Shown here in pieces: positions 3,414 through 35,230 of a DNA stretch of 36,073 nt. The DNA comes from a virus. Within the stretch, counting starts at the first letter, position 1. Each line of letters starts with the position of its first letter. The position numbers were made by a program, and so were the translations under genes. The stretch covers positions 1 through 36,073 of IMG/VR virus record IMGVR_UViG_3300044800_000006; one strand, 5' to 3'. The notes under the pieces were generated by a model. That model had not been told where the DNA came from and ran no database searches. It was given only the letters and a program-made list of their open reading frames with translations.

Positions 3414-3860
3414 TTAATACCAGTTATGTTTTAAGTGCCAGTCCCAAGCATTTTTGGGGTTTTCGTAACGATCGGCAACGTATCTTATGCAAGCGACTAT
3501 CTGATCTTCTGGGCTAGACTCAACTGTGATTCCGTAGTTTTCGCGGGTTTGCTTCAAGAACTGACAGAGGCCCTGCGCTGTCGAAGTCGGATTTTGTGCT
3601 TCAGCGTTCCATCCACTCTCTTTGTTCACCAACTTGTCAAAACTTTCCCAATGTCCTGTGCCAAACTTTTCATCAACTTTTAAATGTGCAAATTCTTGAA
3701 TCGTTAAAGGTCGACTGGGAGGCTCGGACTCGACCGAGGGTGTTTCTGTTTGTTCAACTTTTGTCTCAACTTGTTTTACTTGGGGTTGCTGTACTCCAAG
3801 ATAGGTGGCAATGATTGCCGGTAGAAAAAATACTGAAAGTGATATTGTGTTTTTATCCAT
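3414..3860 (-). CDS. Membrane-anchored lytic transglycosylase-like protein
   Basis: 148 residues. A hydrophobic segment at about 7-22 is a signal or membrane anchor, followed by a Gln/Pro/Glu-rich linker to about 55. The C-terminal domain carries W..FDKLVNKESGWN with the likely catalytic Glu81, then NPTSTAQGLCQFL, RYVADRY and a final HNWY. This is the pattern of the small transglycosylase-like domain of aggregation-promoting/resuscitation-type proteins ('LV..ESGW...A.NP.S.A.G..Q'). It would cleave peptidoglycan glycan strands outside the membrane. Its place in the left, probably early operon, away from the CHAP endolysin, suggests a role other than final lysis. A hairpin CCCC-gtaaa-GGGG overlaps its SD region. 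Confidence 0.8.
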   Translation of the reverse strand: MDKNTISLSVFFLPAIIATYLGVQQPQVKQVETKVEQTETPSVESEPPSRPLTIQEFAHLKVDEKFGTGHWESFDKLVNKESGWNAEAQNPTSTAQGLCQFLKQTRENYGITVESSPEDQIVACIRYVADRYENPKNAWDWHLKHNWY

Positions 3861-3893
3861 ACACCTACCCCCGTAAAGGGGCAGGTTGCATAA

Positions 3894-4031
3894 TTAGGAG
3901 CGAATAAAGCCAGCTACACTACCTGCGAGAGACTTGATATCGCGAGGTATTCTTTTGATCGCCTTAGCTAAAAGTGCCAAAGCAATCGGGCTTAAAGCTC
4001 CTATCACTATTCCGAGATAGAATTTGTCCAT
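3894..4031 (-). CDS. 45-aa membrane protein, first gene of left operon
   Basis: ATG 4029-4031 with AAGGAGGATGGG upstream. One hydrophobic helix (about residues 5-23) followed by a basic segment with several Lys/Arg. It is the first gene after the structured leader, so whatever the leader controls acts first on this start. It may be a small holin-like or membrane-modulating peptide; no family recognised. Confidence 0.7.
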   Translation of the reverse strand: MDKFYLGIVIGALSPIALALLAKAIKRIPRDIKSLAGSVAGFIRS

Positions 4032-4045
4032 CCCATCCTCCTTGA

Positions 4046-4263
4046 TTATCCGACCGTCTCTGCCCTAGTTTGGGCTTGCCTTTTGGGTGTTAGGTCGAAG
4101 GTCATTATTTATTAGACGCTTCGGCTTCAGCTTCCCGCGATTATGTAGGGCAGCTCACCAGCTATAAGCAGAAATAGTCGGATAACTTTTTAATGTTCGA
4201 CCCCCTGCAGGAGAGCTGTGTAAAATAACAGCTCGCGAGAGATTTAGACCAAGCCCCTCCTGC
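4046..4263 (-). ncRNA. Structured 5' leader RNA with predicted pseudoknot
   Basis: This noncoding stretch between the promoter (start site near 4299) and the first gene contains several long complementary pairs on the transcript. TTATCCGAC (4177-4185) pairs with GTCGGATAA (4046-4054). Nested within it CTGCCCTA (4146-4153) pairs with TAGGGCAG (4060-4067). GGTCGAA (4196-4202) pairs with TTCGACC (4093-4099), crossing the first helix. A separate arm has GCAGGAG/CTCCTGC (4257-4263 with 4207-4213) enclosing GAGCTGT/ACAGCTC. The 3' strand of the 9-bp helix ends just before the SD of the first gene, so folding could gate translation. It matches no riboswitch class I can name. Confidence 0.65.
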
Positions 4264-4305
4264 GGGCGGGCGACCATTGTTGTAAAAGTACATCTGACAA
4301 TTTGT

Positions 4306-4334
4306 ATTATAGTCGAAAAATTATTGTTTGTCAA
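4306..4334 (-). promoter_or_regulatory. Consensus sigma70 promoter of left operon
   Basis: Minus strand reads TTGACA (4334-4329), a 17-base spacer, then TATAAT (4311-4306): a perfect match to both consensus boxes and spacing. Predicted transcription start is near 4299, giving a leader of about 270 nt before the first start codon at 4031. Strength this high suggests immediate-early expression by host RNA polymerase. Confidence 0.93.
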
Positions 4335-4369
4335 TACCTAGATAGGTAGCGATAGGTTATTAACAGGTA
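4335..4369. promoter_or_regulatory. Palindromic operator candidate between divergent promoters
   Basis: TACCTA-GA-TAGGTA (4335-4348) is a perfect palindrome abutting the minus -35 box. Related half-sites TAGGTT (4353-4358) and CAGGTA (4364-4369) follow towards the plus promoter. This is where a repressor controlling both promoters would bind. The binding protein is not identified in the window. Confidence 0.6.
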
Positions 4370-4379
4370 TATTGTTCTA

Positions 4380-4408
4380 TTGACAGAAATGCACTATCCT
4401 GATAATAT
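4380..4408 (+). promoter_or_regulatory. Plus-strand promoter of the leaderless gene at 4415
   Basis: TTGACA (4380-4385), 17-base spacer, then an extended -10 TGaTAATAT (hexamer 4403-4408; GATAAT at 4401-4406 is an alternative). The predicted start site, six to seven bases on, coincides with the ATG at 4415, and no SD is present. It is divergent from the left-operon promoter. Confidence 0.8.
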
Positions 4409-4414
4409 AACATT

Positions 4415-4666
4415 ATGCTAATAAAATTACGCTTAGGTTTTCACTTAAAACTATACAAAAAAGGAGAGCTGGTAGTTGACACCAGATTGCGTATGAAAAC
4501 TCGTGTTGACGACCGTGTTAAGGTAGCCCTCTGGGATAAGGGCTATTTGAAGGTGACTTACAAGCCCGGAGTCTTTAATGAAATTGATTTCAAAAACTAT
4601 GCGGATTTCCGCAAAGCACTAACAATCTTTACCGAACATCAGCTCGTCAAATATCTTCAATCCTAA
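4415..4666 (+). CDS. Hypothetical protein, apparently leaderless, divergent
   Basis: 83 residues on the plus strand, one of only two supported plus-strand genes. It is basic and beta-rich (repeated short strands with 'LWDKGYLKVTYKPG'), ending in a helix. No helix-turn-helix is evident, so it need not be a repressor, although its position opposite the early promoter and beside a palindrome is where a switch gene would be. Transcription probably begins at or next to the A of the ATG. Read-through of the right operon would run antisense to it. Confidence 0.75.
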   Translation: MLIKLRLGFHLKLYKKGELVVDTRLRMKTRVDDRVKVALWDKGYLKVTYKPGVFNEIDFKNYADFRKALTIFTEHQLVKYLQS

Positions 4667-15591: not shown

Positions 15592-15612
15592 AGTTTCCTT
15601 TCAACAATTAAA

Positions 15613-15644
15613 GCTCTACAGAGTCAGGGAAGAAACTGTAGAGC
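15613..15644 (-). other. Hairpin in leader of glycan cassette
   Basis: GCTCTACAG and CTGTAGAGC (15613-15621 and 15636-15644) form a perfect 9-bp stem with a 14-base loop, 22 nt upstream of the first glycosyltransferase ATG. A third near-copy, GCTCTATAG, lies at 15679-15687 in the TAGCATCTTTAG copy, so an alternative pairing is possible. No T-tract follows on the minus strand, so it looks regulatory or a processing site rather than a terminator. Confidence 0.65.
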
Positions 15645-15662
15645 CATAGTTACCCCTGACTT

Positions 15663-15761
15663 TTAGCTACTACTAAAGATGCTATAGAGCTTTTGACTTC
15701 TTATTTTGCTTATATTTTTTGCATCGTAAATTGACACATATTCTACAATCTCTGAAACCAT
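15663..15761 (-). CDS. Possible 32-residue ORF spanning the motif
   Basis: ATG 15759-15761 opens a 32-codon frame ending in SIFSSS, with the TAGCATCTTTAG copy inside the last codons. No SD is present and the composition is unremarkable. It may be a leader peptide for the glycan cassette or not translated at all. Confidence 0.25.
   Translation of the reverse strand: MVSEIVEYVSIYDAKNISKIRSQKLYSIFSSS
15673..15684 (-). repeat. TAGCATCTTTAG motif, copy 2
   Basis: Lies between coat terminator and glycan cassette, 82 nt before the ATG at 15591, and just upstream of the 15613-15644 hairpin. Confidence 0.8.
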
Positions 15762-15783
15762 AATATTATTCGTTTACAATACC

Positions 15784-15808
15784 AAAAAGACGCCTTTCGA
15801 CGTCTTTT
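15784..15808 (-). terminator. Rho-independent terminator after coat gene
   Basis: On the minus strand AAGACGTC-GAAA-GGCGTCTT followed by TTT: an 8-bp stem (one G-U) capped by a GNRA-type GAAA tetraloop and a short T-run. It begins about 20 nt after the coat stop and would limit read-through into the glycan cassette, allowing high coat expression. Confidence 0.88.
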
Positions 15809-15830
15809 CAGTAGGTTAATTAGTTAAACC

Positions 15831-28624: not shown

Positions 28625-30802
28625 CTATTCCAAAAGGTCAATATTAAAGCGTTTTCTAATTGGCCGTCTGCCAAACCCTGTCACAGGATCGCCACCGGTG
28701 TAGCCGATGATGGGCTGATGCTTCTTAATCTGGCTGTTTAAATAATTAAACATAAAGTAACGTAATGAATCGCAGTTAGATACTAAAAGACCATTAGCGA
28801 AGTAACAGCCATTTTGAGTGCTTAGGTTATAAACTATTCTTTTTCGTAGCGGTTGCGGGTTTAACTTGCTTGATGCCCCTTCTTCTACGGAGGGCATACA
28901 TTTTGCAATTAAGTCCGCAAAACTTCGATCGTGTTGGGAACGGGGTTTTATATCCAATCCCGCAACTTTGACAGTGTTTAGAATACATTTTCCTATTATC
29001 CCAGCATTTTCTACCATTTCTGATATGCCATTTTCTACCTTCATCTGATTTATGCCATATTTTTGCTGATTCTCTTGCTTTTTCAAGTCCTGATTGCCAG
29101 TTTTTAGTTGGATGATTCTTTTTATGTTGCTTATTAGTAAGACATTTAAGATTCTTAATATCATTGTTAAGAGTGTCCCCGTCAATGTGATGTATCTCAT
29201 TGCCTTTTGGAATATCCCCGTTGATACTTTCCCAAATTGCTCTGTGGAGTAATTTTGGTTTGCCTCCGAACTTCTTGTAAGCAGACGACATAAAATACCG
29301 CCTAAGTTCCACTTTAGATGAGTTTGGGTATCTCCTATATGGTATTCCTTCAAAGTATATGGTTTCGTGCATAGATATATTGTATCAAAGTATCGCAGAG
29401 TGTCAATAGGCACAAAACCCTTCTGTGTCAGTATTTTATGATTAGGCGTAACGATAGTCCCATAAAAATCTACCACTTCTTTAACGCCAGTTTGAGATAT
29501 ATTATTGATTTTACTCCAACCAAAAGGTGTCCAAACTTTATATGTTTTGTCTAACTTTTCAATATCTACTTGACCCTTATCAGTAAGTATTTTAGTCCCA
29601 GCACCAAAGCAATAGTTATCATTTTCTTTTTTAGGCACTTGCTTGAACTTGCCATCCGTCCCCCTAACTTCTATCCAAACGTACTGTTCTATCTGCTCAA
29701 TAGCTGTTTTAAGATGCTTACTTATAGTCCACTTTGGCTTCTTGTTTATAGGATCGAACATCATATACTCGTGAACTTTAGCTATTCCAAGTTCAACGTC
29801 TTTGTTTGTTTCTAATATAGGCCAAGAAAGGCGTTTAAGCTCTTCAATCAAGTCAGGCCTGGCGGGGTCGGGGAAGATACCTTGAATCACAAGTCCGTTA
29901 GTTTGTGCTTTCATCAACTCGTCTATCTCGTCAATGCCTTTTTGTGATACATCAAAGCCATCAAAGGTATAAACTCCGTTAGAAGTCACCTCGTGCCACA
30001 GTACAGCCGTTTCGTGGCCAACAGCAAAGCCAAAGTCTATTGAACCAAAGATAGTCCCCATAGGTTCGCGCCTATCAACGATATGTATATCCCTTGAAAA
30101 GGTTGGCCAGATAGCACCGGAGCGTTTCATAAACTCGGCCATATACTCTTGTTCAAATCTTTCAGAACTCATTGTAGTTTTAGCTTCGTCTATTTCGGAG
30201 GATTTGATATAAGGATTGTCATATGAGGTAAAGTGAAATGACTTATAATTCTTGTTAGTTTGTTCTTGATTATAAAGATCATAGAACCAGTTATATCCAT
30301 CGGGTGTGGAGATAAACACCACCCAACCTTCTCTATCAGCTAACATTGGTCTAATGACATCCCAAGCGTAGGGGGCGATAAAAGCACTCTCATCCATTAT
30401 CAAGCCATCTAAACCTACTCCTCTTAAACTGTCGGGGTTGTCAGAACCTTTGAGAGCTATTCTTGAGCCGTTGATAAGCTCAACTGATAGTTCTGTTTCG
30501 TTTGTTTTAGATACTAACTCTCTTGGAAGGTATTTAGTTAAAAGCCGCCAAGATATTTCTTTGATCTGGCGATACGTTGGGCCAACGATCCAATAATCAC
30601 CTTGCTTATTTACAGCGTCTTGAATTAACTTGTTGACAGCCCAGACACTCTTTCCAAACCTTCTCCCACATCTAACTACTTTATAGCGATGTGTATCATC
30701 GTGTAAGAGCTTTTGTTTTGGATGCGGCACATACCCGTTGTTAGCGAGTATTTGTTGCAACCTTATCTCTTGTTCACAGGCTAAATTTGTATCCATAATC
30801 AA
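28625..30802 (-). CDS. terL: Terminase large subunit, intein-containing
   Basis: 725 residues if started at TTG 30802 (right after the upstream stop); ATG at 30796 is an alternative two codons later. ATPase: Walker A GRRFGKS at about 46-52, Walker B LIMDES about 134-139, coupling ISTPDG about 164-169. Nuclease: SIDFGFA with D256, DPARPD near 312, and a third motif split by the intein: extein ...NDNY before residue 398 and CDSLRYFMF after 676, which rejoin as NDNYCDSLRY, corresponding to D-x-x-x-D-ALRY of terminases. Unspliced, the nuclease is broken; splicing is expected to be essential. A short remaining C-terminus carries GGDP...RRPIRKRF. Confidence 0.92.
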   Translation of the reverse strand: MIMDTNLACEQEIRLQQILANNGYVPHPKQKLLHDDTHRYKVVRCGRRFGKSVWAVNKLIQDAVNKQGDYWIVGPTYRQIKEISWRLLTKYLPRELVSKTNETELSVELINGSRIALKGSDNPDSLRGVGLDGLIMDESAFIAPYAWDVIRPMLADREGWVVFISTPDGYNWFYDLYNQEQTNKNYKSFHFTSYDNPYIKSSEIDEAKTTMSSERFEQEYMAEFMKRSGAIWPTFSRDIHIVDRREPMGTIFGSIDFGFAVGHETAVLWHEVTSNGVYTFDGFDVSQKGIDEIDELMKAQTNGLVIQGIFPDPARPDLIEELKRLSWPILETNKDVELGIAKVHEYMMFDPINKKPKWTISKHLKTAIEQIEQYVWIEVRGTDGKFKQVPKKENDNYCFGAGTKILTDKGQVDIEKLDKTYKVWTPFGWSKINNISQTGVKEVVDFYGTIVTPNHKILTQKGFVPIDTLRYFDTIYLCTKPYTLKEYHIGDTQTHLKWNLGGILCRLLTRSSEANQNYSTEQFGKVSTGIFQKAMRYITLTGTLLTMILRILNVLLISNIKRIIQLKTGNQDLKKQENQQKYGINQMKVENGISEMVENAGIIGKCILNTVKVAGLDIKPRSQHDRSFADLIAKCMPSVEEGASSKLNPQPLRKRIVYNLSTQNGCYFANGLLVSNCDSLRYFMFNYLNSQIKKHQPIIGYTGGDPVTGFGRRPIRKRFNIDLLE
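28775..29611 (-). other. Intein in TerL (mini-intein splicing domains, 279 aa)
   Basis: Splice junctions by inspection: N-terminal Cys398 begins CFGAGTKIL (block A); block B includes GTIVTPNHKILTQKGF. C-terminal block F is RIVYNLSTQNGCYFANG and block G is LLVSN, with Asn676 and a +1 Cys. Block B has the TxxH pattern. The usual penultimate His before the terminal Asn is replaced (Ser-Asn), a change tolerated in some inteins. Splicing domains occupy about 398-480 and 650-676; between lies a stretch that reads in-frame as a low-quality linker but is a gene in another frame. Confidence 0.9.
28827..29372 (-). CDS. HNH homing endonuclease encoded inside the intein in another frame
   Basis: 181 residues; ATG 29370-29372, -1 frame to TerL. 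HNH core at about 43-85: LHRAIWESINGDIPKG, then EIHHIDGDTLNNDIKNLKCL and NKQHKKNH, the H-N-H/N layout of homing endonucleases. The C-terminal part has CQSCG and FCGLNCK (zinc ribbon) and a basic tail. The stop (28827) falls at the boundary of intein block F. An in-frame TGA at 29385-29387 prevents upstream extension. No SD, so translation may be by internal re-initiation, a -1 frameshift between 29384 and 29372, or a separate transcript. It would cut intein-less terL alleles. Confidence 0.85.
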   Translation of the reverse strand: MHETIYFEGIPYRRYPNSSKVELRRYFMSSAYKKFGGKPKLLHRAIWESINGDIPKGNEIHHIDGDTLNNDIKNLKCLTNKQHKKNHPTKNWQSGLEKARESAKIWHKSDEGRKWHIRNGRKCWDNRKMYSKHCQSCGIGYKTPFPTRSKFCGLNCKMYALRRRRGIKQVKPATATKKNSL

Positions 30803-33936: not shown

Positions 33937-34080
33937 CTATTTCCCTTCTGCTTTTTCTAGTTCTAAATCATTTTTGGGTTTTTGTCTGATATAAAACAAT
34001 TTAATATTTTTACTTAAGCCCCATCTATCCATAATATATTTAACTTTGTGTTTTACTCTTTTACTTTTTCTTTTTAACAT
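33937..34080 (-). CDS. 47-residue basic protein, first gene of right operon
   Basis: ATG 34078-34080 preceded by AAAAGGAGTACAC. N-terminal ten residues are nearly all Lys/Arg, then MDRWGLSKNIKLFYIRQKP and a Glu/Lys tail. It opens the right operon after the structured leader. Probably nucleic-acid binding by composition. Not recognised. Confidence 0.65.
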   Translation of the reverse strand: MLKRKSKRVKHKVKYIMDRWGLSKNIKLFYIRQKPKNDLELEKAEGK

Positions 34081-34130
34081 TGTGTACTCCTTTTAAAACA
34101 TACACCTCCTTTCGTTATTAAAGTGCTTTG

Positions 34131-34266
34131 TTGAGACAGATAGTTTTCCACAATGCGTAATCAGTTGCGAGCTGTGCTATGGCGGGCTTTCAACCTTCGT
34201 TATCTTGGCTTCAAGTTGCGGTCTTGAAGCAGCAGTTGGTTTCCTACAACGAGGTATCTGCCTCAA
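34131..34266 (-). ncRNA. Structured leader RNA closed by a 12-bp stem
   Basis: On the minus transcript TTGAGGCAGATA (34255-34266) pairs with TATCTGTCTCAA (34131-34142): 12 bp with one G-U that would be an A-C mismatch on the plus strand, which sets the strand. Inside, TCGTT/AACGA (34248-34252 with 34197-34201) encloses the 8-bp hairpin GCTTCAAG/CTTGAAGC (34208-34215, 34223-34230; seven-base loop), and 34143-34196 is left for another arm. The closing stem starts just after the predicted start site (about 34272). No known RNA family is recognised. It may be a leader, a regulatory RNA or a separate small RNA. Confidence 0.65.
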
Positions 34267-34278
34267 TAAAATACTCTA

Positions 34279-34307
34279 GTTGTAATGTGCTAAAAAACAG
34301 TTGTAAA
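34279..34307 (-). promoter_or_regulatory. Candidate promoter of right operon
   Basis: TTTACA (34307-34302) and TACAAC (34284-34279) with a 17-base spacer: 5/6 and 4/6 matches to sigma70 boxes. It points into the structured leader and the operon. Weaker than the left promoter, and a phage-factor requirement is possible. Confidence 0.5.
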
Positions 34308-34320
34308 CAACTTGTAAACT
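34282..34320. repeat. TTGTAAAC operator-like repeats
   Basis: TTGTAAAC occurs at about 34301-34308 and again 11 bases on, with a weaker TTGTAATG at 34281-34288; the two strong copies make AGTTGTAAACAACT, a palindrome. They overlap the candidate promoter, so they could be a binding site for a regulator. Confidence 0.5.
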
Positions 34321-34338
34321 AATTTACTCAAGTAGGGA

Positions 34339-34381
34339 GGGAGTAAGCGGGCTGTGTCTTGTTATGCTTCTGCTTACTCCC
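34339..34381 (-). terminator. 10-bp inverted repeat between GC-rich block and right operon
   Basis: GGGAGTAAGC (34339-34348) and GCTTACTCCC (34372-34381), a perfect 10-bp stem with a 23-base loop. It lies after the last GC-rich gene and before the right-operon promoter. No T-run follows on the minus strand, so terminator versus processing or attachment site is unclear. Confidence 0.5.
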
Positions 34382-34401
34382 CGTGTGTTGTCCCCGTTGG
34401 T

Positions 34402-34479
34402 CTACGGGACTTCGGCGGTCTTCGCCACGGTGTCCTCGACGAGCGTGCCGACTGCCATCTGCGTCTGCTTGCGTTTCAT
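34402..34479 (-). CDS. 25-residue peptide in GC-rich block
   Basis: ATG 34477-34479 with GGAGG six bases upstream, a strong ribosome site. Peptide is KRKQTQMAVGTLVEDTV then K-T-A-E-V-P. A different longer frame from 34555 covers the same bases but looks less like protein beyond residue 25. No family recognised. Confidence 0.4.
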   Translation of the reverse strand: MKRKQTQMAVGTLVEDTVAKTAEVP

Positions 34480-34609
34480 CTCGTGCCTCCGTGGGACTGG
34501 GGTAGGGAAACTTGATTTTCCTCGCCACCCATTCAAGGGCGAGTTTTAGGGTCATTGGCTGTAGCTGGGGGTGCTGAATCTAGTTCAGGTCAGCTACTAG
34601 CGAGTAGCC

Positions 34610-34810
34610 CTAAAGCGTGCCTGCGTCTATCTCCTCAAAGTGCTGTCTGGTCAGTTGACTGCACCAACTCCTCGCCGCTTGTTCGTTGTCGAACTCGTCA
34701 AAGAAGTGGTGGACAGTCTTGTCGCCCTTCATCAGTGTGTAGTGGTACATCGAGCCATCGTACGCAAGCTCGACTCGGTAACCTCGGTACAGCGTGCCGA
34801 AAACAATCAC
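34610..34810 (-). CDS. Hypothetical protein, 66 aa, GC-rich codons
   Basis: GTG start at 34808-34810. Y/H/D-rich mixed protein: VFGTLYRGYRVELAYDGSMYHYTLMKG and FFDEFDNEQAARSW. Codons are distinctly GC-rich compared with the rest of the genome. The pattern of hydrophobic residues looks coding. Not recognised. Confidence 0.6.
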   Translation of the reverse strand: MIVFGTLYRGYRVELAYDGSMYHYTLMKGDKTVHHFFDEFDNEQAARSWCSQLTRQHFEEIDAGTL

Positions 34811-34820
34811 CTCTCACCTC

Positions 34821-35021
34821 TCAGAGTGTGGCAAGGACATCTCGGACAGCATCCAAAGCATTGGCTGGTGTCAGCTTCTTGCCGACCACCTTGACGATGT
34901 TGACGGTCTTGCCCGTCGCCCCTTTGGTCTTGACCACTACGGTCATACTACCCTTGCGGAGGCGAACTCGGAAGTCGCACTCGGTCAACGGCATTGTCAC
35001 ACCACCTTCTGTGGTCATAGC
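34821..35021 (-). CDS. Hypothetical protein, 66 aa, GC-rich codons
   Basis: ATG 35019-35021 chosen because AAGGAGGCGCT is just upstream. Beta-rich first half (CDFRVRLRKGSMTVVVKTKG) and a helix ending DAVRDVLATL. Reads like a small basic DNA-interacting protein but nothing specific. It follows the 35052-35108 hairpin and shares the GC-rich composition of its neighbour. Confidence 0.65.
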   Translation of the reverse strand, partial: AMTTEGGVTMPLTECDFRVRLRKGSMTVVVKTKGATGKTVNIVKVVGKKLTPANALDAVRDVLATL

Positions 35022-35051
35022 GCCTCCTTCTTCTACTCTTATTGCACCAGC

Positions 35052-35108
35052 ATTCCTCACTAGCAAAGAGGGGACTTTTGGGAGTCGAGACCAAATCTAG
35101 CGAGGAAT
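35052..35108 (-). other. 12-bp stem in the leader of the GC-rich genes
   Basis: ATTCCTCGCTAG (35097-35108) and CTAGTGAGGAAT (35052-35063) pair over 12 bp on the minus transcript with a single G-U, a C-A mismatch on the plus strand. An inner GACT...AGTC pair lies in the loop. It ends about 30 nt before the ATG at 35021. Confidence 0.6.
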
Positions 35109-35230
35109 ATTAGTACAATAAAAAAAGAGACCGGAATAAATTCGCAGGTGCGATTTTATACTCGATCTATTTGTCTCGCGGACTATATTTAACTTAACAC
35201 TTTAAAAAGTTATGTCAAGTTTTCAAAAAG

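What the first reader, a model, noticed from the sequence alone, without database searches (positions are those of the whole stretch)
4046..4263. Long structured leader with interlocked helices before the first early gene
Five helices of 6-9 bp are perfect, and one (GGTCGAA/TTCGACC) crosses another, giving a predicted pseudoknot. The 3' strand of the main helix ends next to the SD of the 45-residue gene. The shape is unlike any riboswitch I recognise, and the preceding promoter is perfect, so control may be post-initiation.
Basis: partly seen in the sequence, partly recalled or inferred. Interest (0 to 1): 0.72.

Follow-up and report, generated by a model that had tools for sequence, protein, structure and literature searches.

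The report
Structured orphan leader of phage operon
A 268-base untranslated RNA that precedes the first early gene of an uncultured phage folds better than chance into two big hairpin domains, but no relative of it was found, so its function cannot yet be tested by comparison and the claimed knot is not supported.

Summary
The leader is real. On the minus strand the window's only 12/12 sigma-70 promoter (4334-4306) is followed by about 268 nt of untranslated, GC-rich RNA (49% against 41%). It ends at AAGGAGG and a 45-codon ORF that heads the lysis and replication genes. The RNA holds six perfect helices of at least 7 bp (shuffles 1.5; 0 of 200 reach six). They build two stable domains, B (4192-4278) and A (4045-4186). 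The plus strand folds 14 kcal/mol better than the minus strand, which 0 of 150 shuffles match, yet has no good promoter. Rfam, phage and plasmid collections and about 50 related phage records gave no homologue, so covariation is untestable here. The leader does not hide the ribosome site, and no clear intrinsic terminator lies in it. Best guess: a cis-acting leader acting during transcription elongation, put-like in manner but not a shown member. Likely ordinary in kind, orphan in sequence.

The parts
4306..4334 (-). sigma-70 promoter TTGACA-17-TATAAT, 12/12; start expected near 4299
4335..4348 (.). perfect palindrome TACCTAGATAGGTA abutting the -35 box; GATAGGT repeats at 4341 and 4351; operator candidate (inference)
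4032..4299 (-). untranslated leader, about 268 nt, 49% GC
4192..4278 (-). domain B: hairpin of 22-nt arms with internal hairpin GAGCTGT/ACAGCTC and stem GCAGGAG/CTCCTGC
4045..4186 (-). domain A: closed by TTATCCGAC/GTCGGATAA and a further stem, multibranched inside
4093..4099 (-).
4072..4078 (-). CAAGCCC, possible contact with GGGCTTG of domain B (4250-4256); energetically near neutral after a pseudoknot penalty
4046..4105 (-). 19-codon reading frame ending 2 nt before the SD; no SD of its own, probably chance
4037..4043 (-). Shine-Dalgarno AAGGAGG, mostly unpaired in the model
3894..4031 (-). 45-aa ORF, hydrophobic N-terminal half; no family match
3414..3860 (-). SLT transglycosylase gene, second in the operon
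4187..4191 (+). T5 run directly after domain A when read as plus-strand RNA (terminator-like only for a plus transcript)
4415..4666 (+). divergent 83-aa ORF with promoter 4380-4408

Best explanation
A cis-acting 5' leader of the phage's early operon. Transcription starts near 4299 on the minus strand; domain B folds first, then domain A closes just before the SD of the first gene. The folded RNA most likely acts on the elongating RNA polymerase that made it, keeping it processive through terminators downstream, in the manner of HK022 put. Shown: promoter sequence, transcription direction by sequence, folding above chance, an SD that the leader does not hide, no clear intrinsic terminator inside the leader on this strand. 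Inferred: that it is transcribed, that the fold matters, and the whole antitermination step.
For: The window's only 12/12 promoter sits directly upstream. Both domains fold beyond shuffles, z about -3 each, and there are six helices of at least 7 bp against 1.5 expected. Domain B begins about 20 nt after the start and is complete in transcripts of about 110 nt. Leader GC is 49% against 28% just upstream. Opening the SD-to-start region costs 9.1 kcal/mol with the leader and 9.9 without, so the leader does not repress by hiding the SD. At least one clear intrinsic terminator, 15813-15780, lies in the same direction after the capsid gene, so there is something to read through. Put RNAs lie downstream of HK022 early promoters and act without protein (PMC9378689).
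Against: No homologue, so no covariation. The minus strand is the worse-folding strand, and the whole minus leader reaches only z -2.0. The only clear terminator is about 25 kb away along the assumed circular map, and internal promoters could serve the late genes. HK022 put is about 70 nt with two stem-loops (PMC9378689); this is about 230 nt and differs.
Confidence: 0.3

Rival explanations
1. Protective or translational 5' UTR: the hairpins near the 5' end slow decay of the early mRNA and keep the SD of the first gene in an open standby region. No ligand and no switch.
For: The SD is mostly unpaired just 3' of a stable stem. Domain B starts about 20 nt from the predicted 5' end. Structured 5' UTRs are common (general knowledge).
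Against: 142 nt of elaborate domain A is more than protection needs. The start codon itself is predicted paired with early codons, with or without the leader.
Confidence: 0.27
2. The functional RNA is read from the plus strand: an antisense transcript that starts inside the 45-aa gene, folds as one long rod and ends at the T run at 4187-4191, opposing the leader.
For: The plus strand folds 14 kcal/mol better, 0/150 shuffles this asymmetric; z -4.5 and -5.0 for the two domains against -3.3 and -3.1. CTTTTT follows domain A directly.
Against: No convincing plus promoter in 3850-4050 (best 7/12). The long stem does not fit a compact terminator, and all neighbouring genes to the left run minus.
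Confidence: 0.13
3. A DNA-level element, such as a replication or packaging site or the remains of a small inverted-repeat mobile element, whose arms happen to be transcribed.
For: Arms of 18 and 22 nt at 83% and 82% complementarity bound domains A and B. Inverted repeats are symmetric in DNA, so both strands fold.
Against: No second copy in the window. No GC-skew turn at 4300. The strand asymmetry from G-U pairs is not explained.
Confidence: 0.12
4. Ordinary non-coding filler with some chance structure, no function in the fold.
For: No conservation seen; whole-leader z only -2.0. Other stretches of the window reach z -3 to -5.6.
Against: Six helices of at least 7 bp (0/200 shuffles); both domains and both strands beyond chance.
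Confidence: 0.18

Closest known systems
HK022 put RNAs (processive antitermination by nascent RNA)
   Same: Structured RNA immediately downstream of an early phage promoter; putL begins at the very start of the transcript (PMC9378689).
   Different: put is about 70 nt with two stem-loops; here one 87-nt and one 142-nt domain. No activity known; models R1 and R2 have no match in the part of HK022 fetched (24000-40751).
Orphan structured leader or intergenic RNA candidates found by GC-rich intergenic screens (DIMPL type, PMC8723152)
   Same: A GC-rich, long, non-coding stretch before an operon in an AT-richer genome.
   Different: Those motifs are accepted on the strength of homologues and covariation; none is available here.
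cis-regulatory riboswitch leaders
   Same: Position before the first gene, multi-helix fold.
   Different: No Rfam riboswitch matches; no expression platform seen: SD free, no clear terminator on this strand.

Membership tests
HK022-type put RNA | located downstream of an early promoter | tested here: met
   12/12 promoter at 4334-4306, leader follows; early by gene content
HK022-type put RNA | about 70 nt, two stem-loops | tested here: not met
   domain B is a single 87-nt hairpin unit, domain A 142 nt (PMC9378689)
HK022-type put RNA | put sequence similarity | tested here: inconclusive
   models R1 and R2 have no match in HK022 24000-40751; put itself was not located there and no put model was used as query
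HK022-type put RNA | suppresses termination by binding the zinc-binding domain of RNA polymerase beta' | not testable with these tools
   needs transcription assays
Rfam families (riboswitches, group I/II introns, tmRNA, 6S, HEARO, GOLLD and others) | match to the family covariance model | tested here: not met
   0 matches at gathering threshold in the window; at E up to 10 only psRNA6 at 4371-4425 (+), 16.1 bits against 60 needed
   net +2.0 kcal/mol before pseudoknot penalty; crossing helices of 7 bp or more in 52% of shuffles
Conserved structured RNA | compensatory base changes across homologues | not testable with these tools
   no homologue found
tRNA or tmRNA | cloverleaf or tag frame | tested here: not met
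   ARAGORN finds none at standard settings; hits appear only with thresholds lowered or introns allowed

The most novel reading that the evidence does not exclude
A new class of phage regulatory RNA, about 230 nt, in which two domains (B and A) joined by a loop contact GGGCTTG/CAAGCCC either convert the polymerase to a termination-resistant form or are opposed by a well-folded antisense RNA from the plus strand.
Probability: 0.1. Interest if true: 0.7.

Novelty: new member of a known kind. Interest (0 to 1): 0.33.

Why it matters
RNA-only control of phage early transcription is known from very few systems. If this leader made polymerase termination-resistant it would widen that group to an unrelated phage lineage; if it is a protective 5' UTR, it is ordinary. 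A single reporter assay would tell.

Tried and rejected
Homologues by blastn in phages and plasmids: none. Protein-guided loci with exonuclease, transglycosylase, 83-aa ORF, MCP and TerL: relatives found, none shares the leader by blastn or by single-sequence covariance models on either strand. Short matches to G002 and G039 covered only the promoter or AT-rich words. DNA patterns in viral and genome collections gave two and one chance matches inside unrelated sequence. Group I intron was considered because GCGGGAAGC and AAATAGTCGG recall core motifs (from memory); rejected, no Rfam match. A terminator-like hairpin before TTATTTTA at 4228 (-), about -12 kcal/mol, was considered as an attenuator; its U run is broken and the stem imperfect. 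A 43-codon frame starting 6 nt after the predicted start (4162-4293) was judged chance: no SD.

Full report
Setting. The window is an uncultured virus record of 36,073 bp. Nearly all credible genes run on the minus strand: terminase, portal, capsid, tail, glycosyltransferases, endolysin, then, after a short divergent 83-aa ORF (4415-4666, +), the operon of the finding: 45-aa ORF, SLT transglycosylase, 62-aa ORF, exonuclease (phrog_298), DnaD-like helicase loader. A related phage (L007) carries the left-end gene just upstream of its HNH and terminase genes, so the map is probably circularly permuted and the operon of the finding heads the early genes (inference).

The observation. The promoter at 4334-4306 (-) is 12/12, the only one in the window. 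The RNA from about 4299 to 4032 is 268 nt. It holds perfect helices of 9 (4046-4054/4177-4185), 8 (4060-4067/4146-4153) and four times 7 bp; six of 7 bp or more against 1.5 in dinucleotide shuffles, none of 200 as many. The 8-bp helix and the two crossing helices are not part of the nested minimum-energy fold. As minus RNA the domains score z -3.3 (A) and -3.1 (B); the whole leader -2.0. In a scan of the window a few other stretches reach z -3 to -5.6, so the leader stands out but is not unique.

The interlock. Its 5' strand overlaps the base of domain B. Keeping both strands free costs 11.0 kcal/mol, the helix gives 9.0. Half of shuffles have at least one crossing helix of that length. A second crossing helix, GGGCTTG (4250-4256) with CAAGCCC (4072-4078), costs 3.6 and gives 11.0, before a pseudoknot penalty; if there is a tertiary contact it is this one. 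Three crossing helices, as observed, occur in 7% of shuffles.

Strand. The same DNA read as plus RNA folds at -98.7 against -84.7 kcal/mol; shuffles show differences of 0.2 plus or minus 4.7 and none of 150 reaches 14. G-U pairs in the plus strand are A-C mismatches in the minus strand. This is a post hoc test, but it is the one oddity that the leader model does not explain. A plus transcript has no good promoter (best 7 of 12 between 3850 and 4050), although a T run follows domain A (4187-4191).

Function of the leader as minus RNA. The SD AAGGAGG starts 2 nt after the closing helix of domain A and is mostly unpaired; the energy to open SD and start is 9.1 kcal/mol with the leader and 9.9 with only its last nucleotides, so the leader does not sequester it. 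No intrinsic terminator on this strand was found in the leader by the standard scan; a weak candidate before TTATTTTA was seen with a laxer one. Folding of growing transcripts predicts that domain B is complete by 110 nt, that the 5' end then pairs with the 5' strand of domain A's closing helix, and that this is released when the 3' strand appears near 255 nt; this is a prediction only. These features leave elongation control (put-like) and passive protection as the leading ideas. A strong terminator at 15813-15780 shows that this strand does contain stops.

Initiation control is not excluded: a perfect palindrome TACCTAGATAGGTA abuts the -35 box and GATAGGT recurs one helical turn away.

Homologues. 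None: Rfam, phages, plasmids, a pattern in viral contigs (the genome-contig pattern was mis-specified and says nothing), nine records related by exonuclease, MCP or TerL, fifty TerL relatives, and covariance models of domain B, domain A and the plus-strand rod in 48 other records. Many of those records are fragments lacking the early region, so absence there is weak evidence.

Verdict. A real, orphan structured leader; pseudoknot not supported; mechanism not shown, put-like elongation control my first choice at 0.3.

Noticed in passing
28625-30802 (-): The terminase large subunit carries about 280 extra residues from 398 on with a weak Hint match (20.5 bits, below Pfam's cut-off); relative L006 aligns 10-397 and 678-715 almost contiguously, which suggests an intein absent from L006.
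   Followed up: partly
15592-15830 (-): Strongly folding gap after the capsid gene: a 15-bp terminator hairpin at 15813-15780 ending in a U run and a second long hairpin with GCTCTATAG/CTGTAGAGC arms.
   Followed up: partly
   Followed up: partly
34340-35110: GC-rich stretch (49% in 34001-35000 against 41%) with an unmatched 65-aa ORF (34821-35018, -); may be imported.
   Followed up: no
1-280: The left end lies in a tandem repeat of ACCGCACCGCCA type inside a gene whose relative in L007 also holds repeats; the record probably stops there because of assembly.
   Followed up: partly
4380-4415 (+): The divergent promoter 4380-4408 places the predicted start on the ATG of the 83-aa ORF at 4415, so that mRNA may be leaderless.
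   Followed up: no
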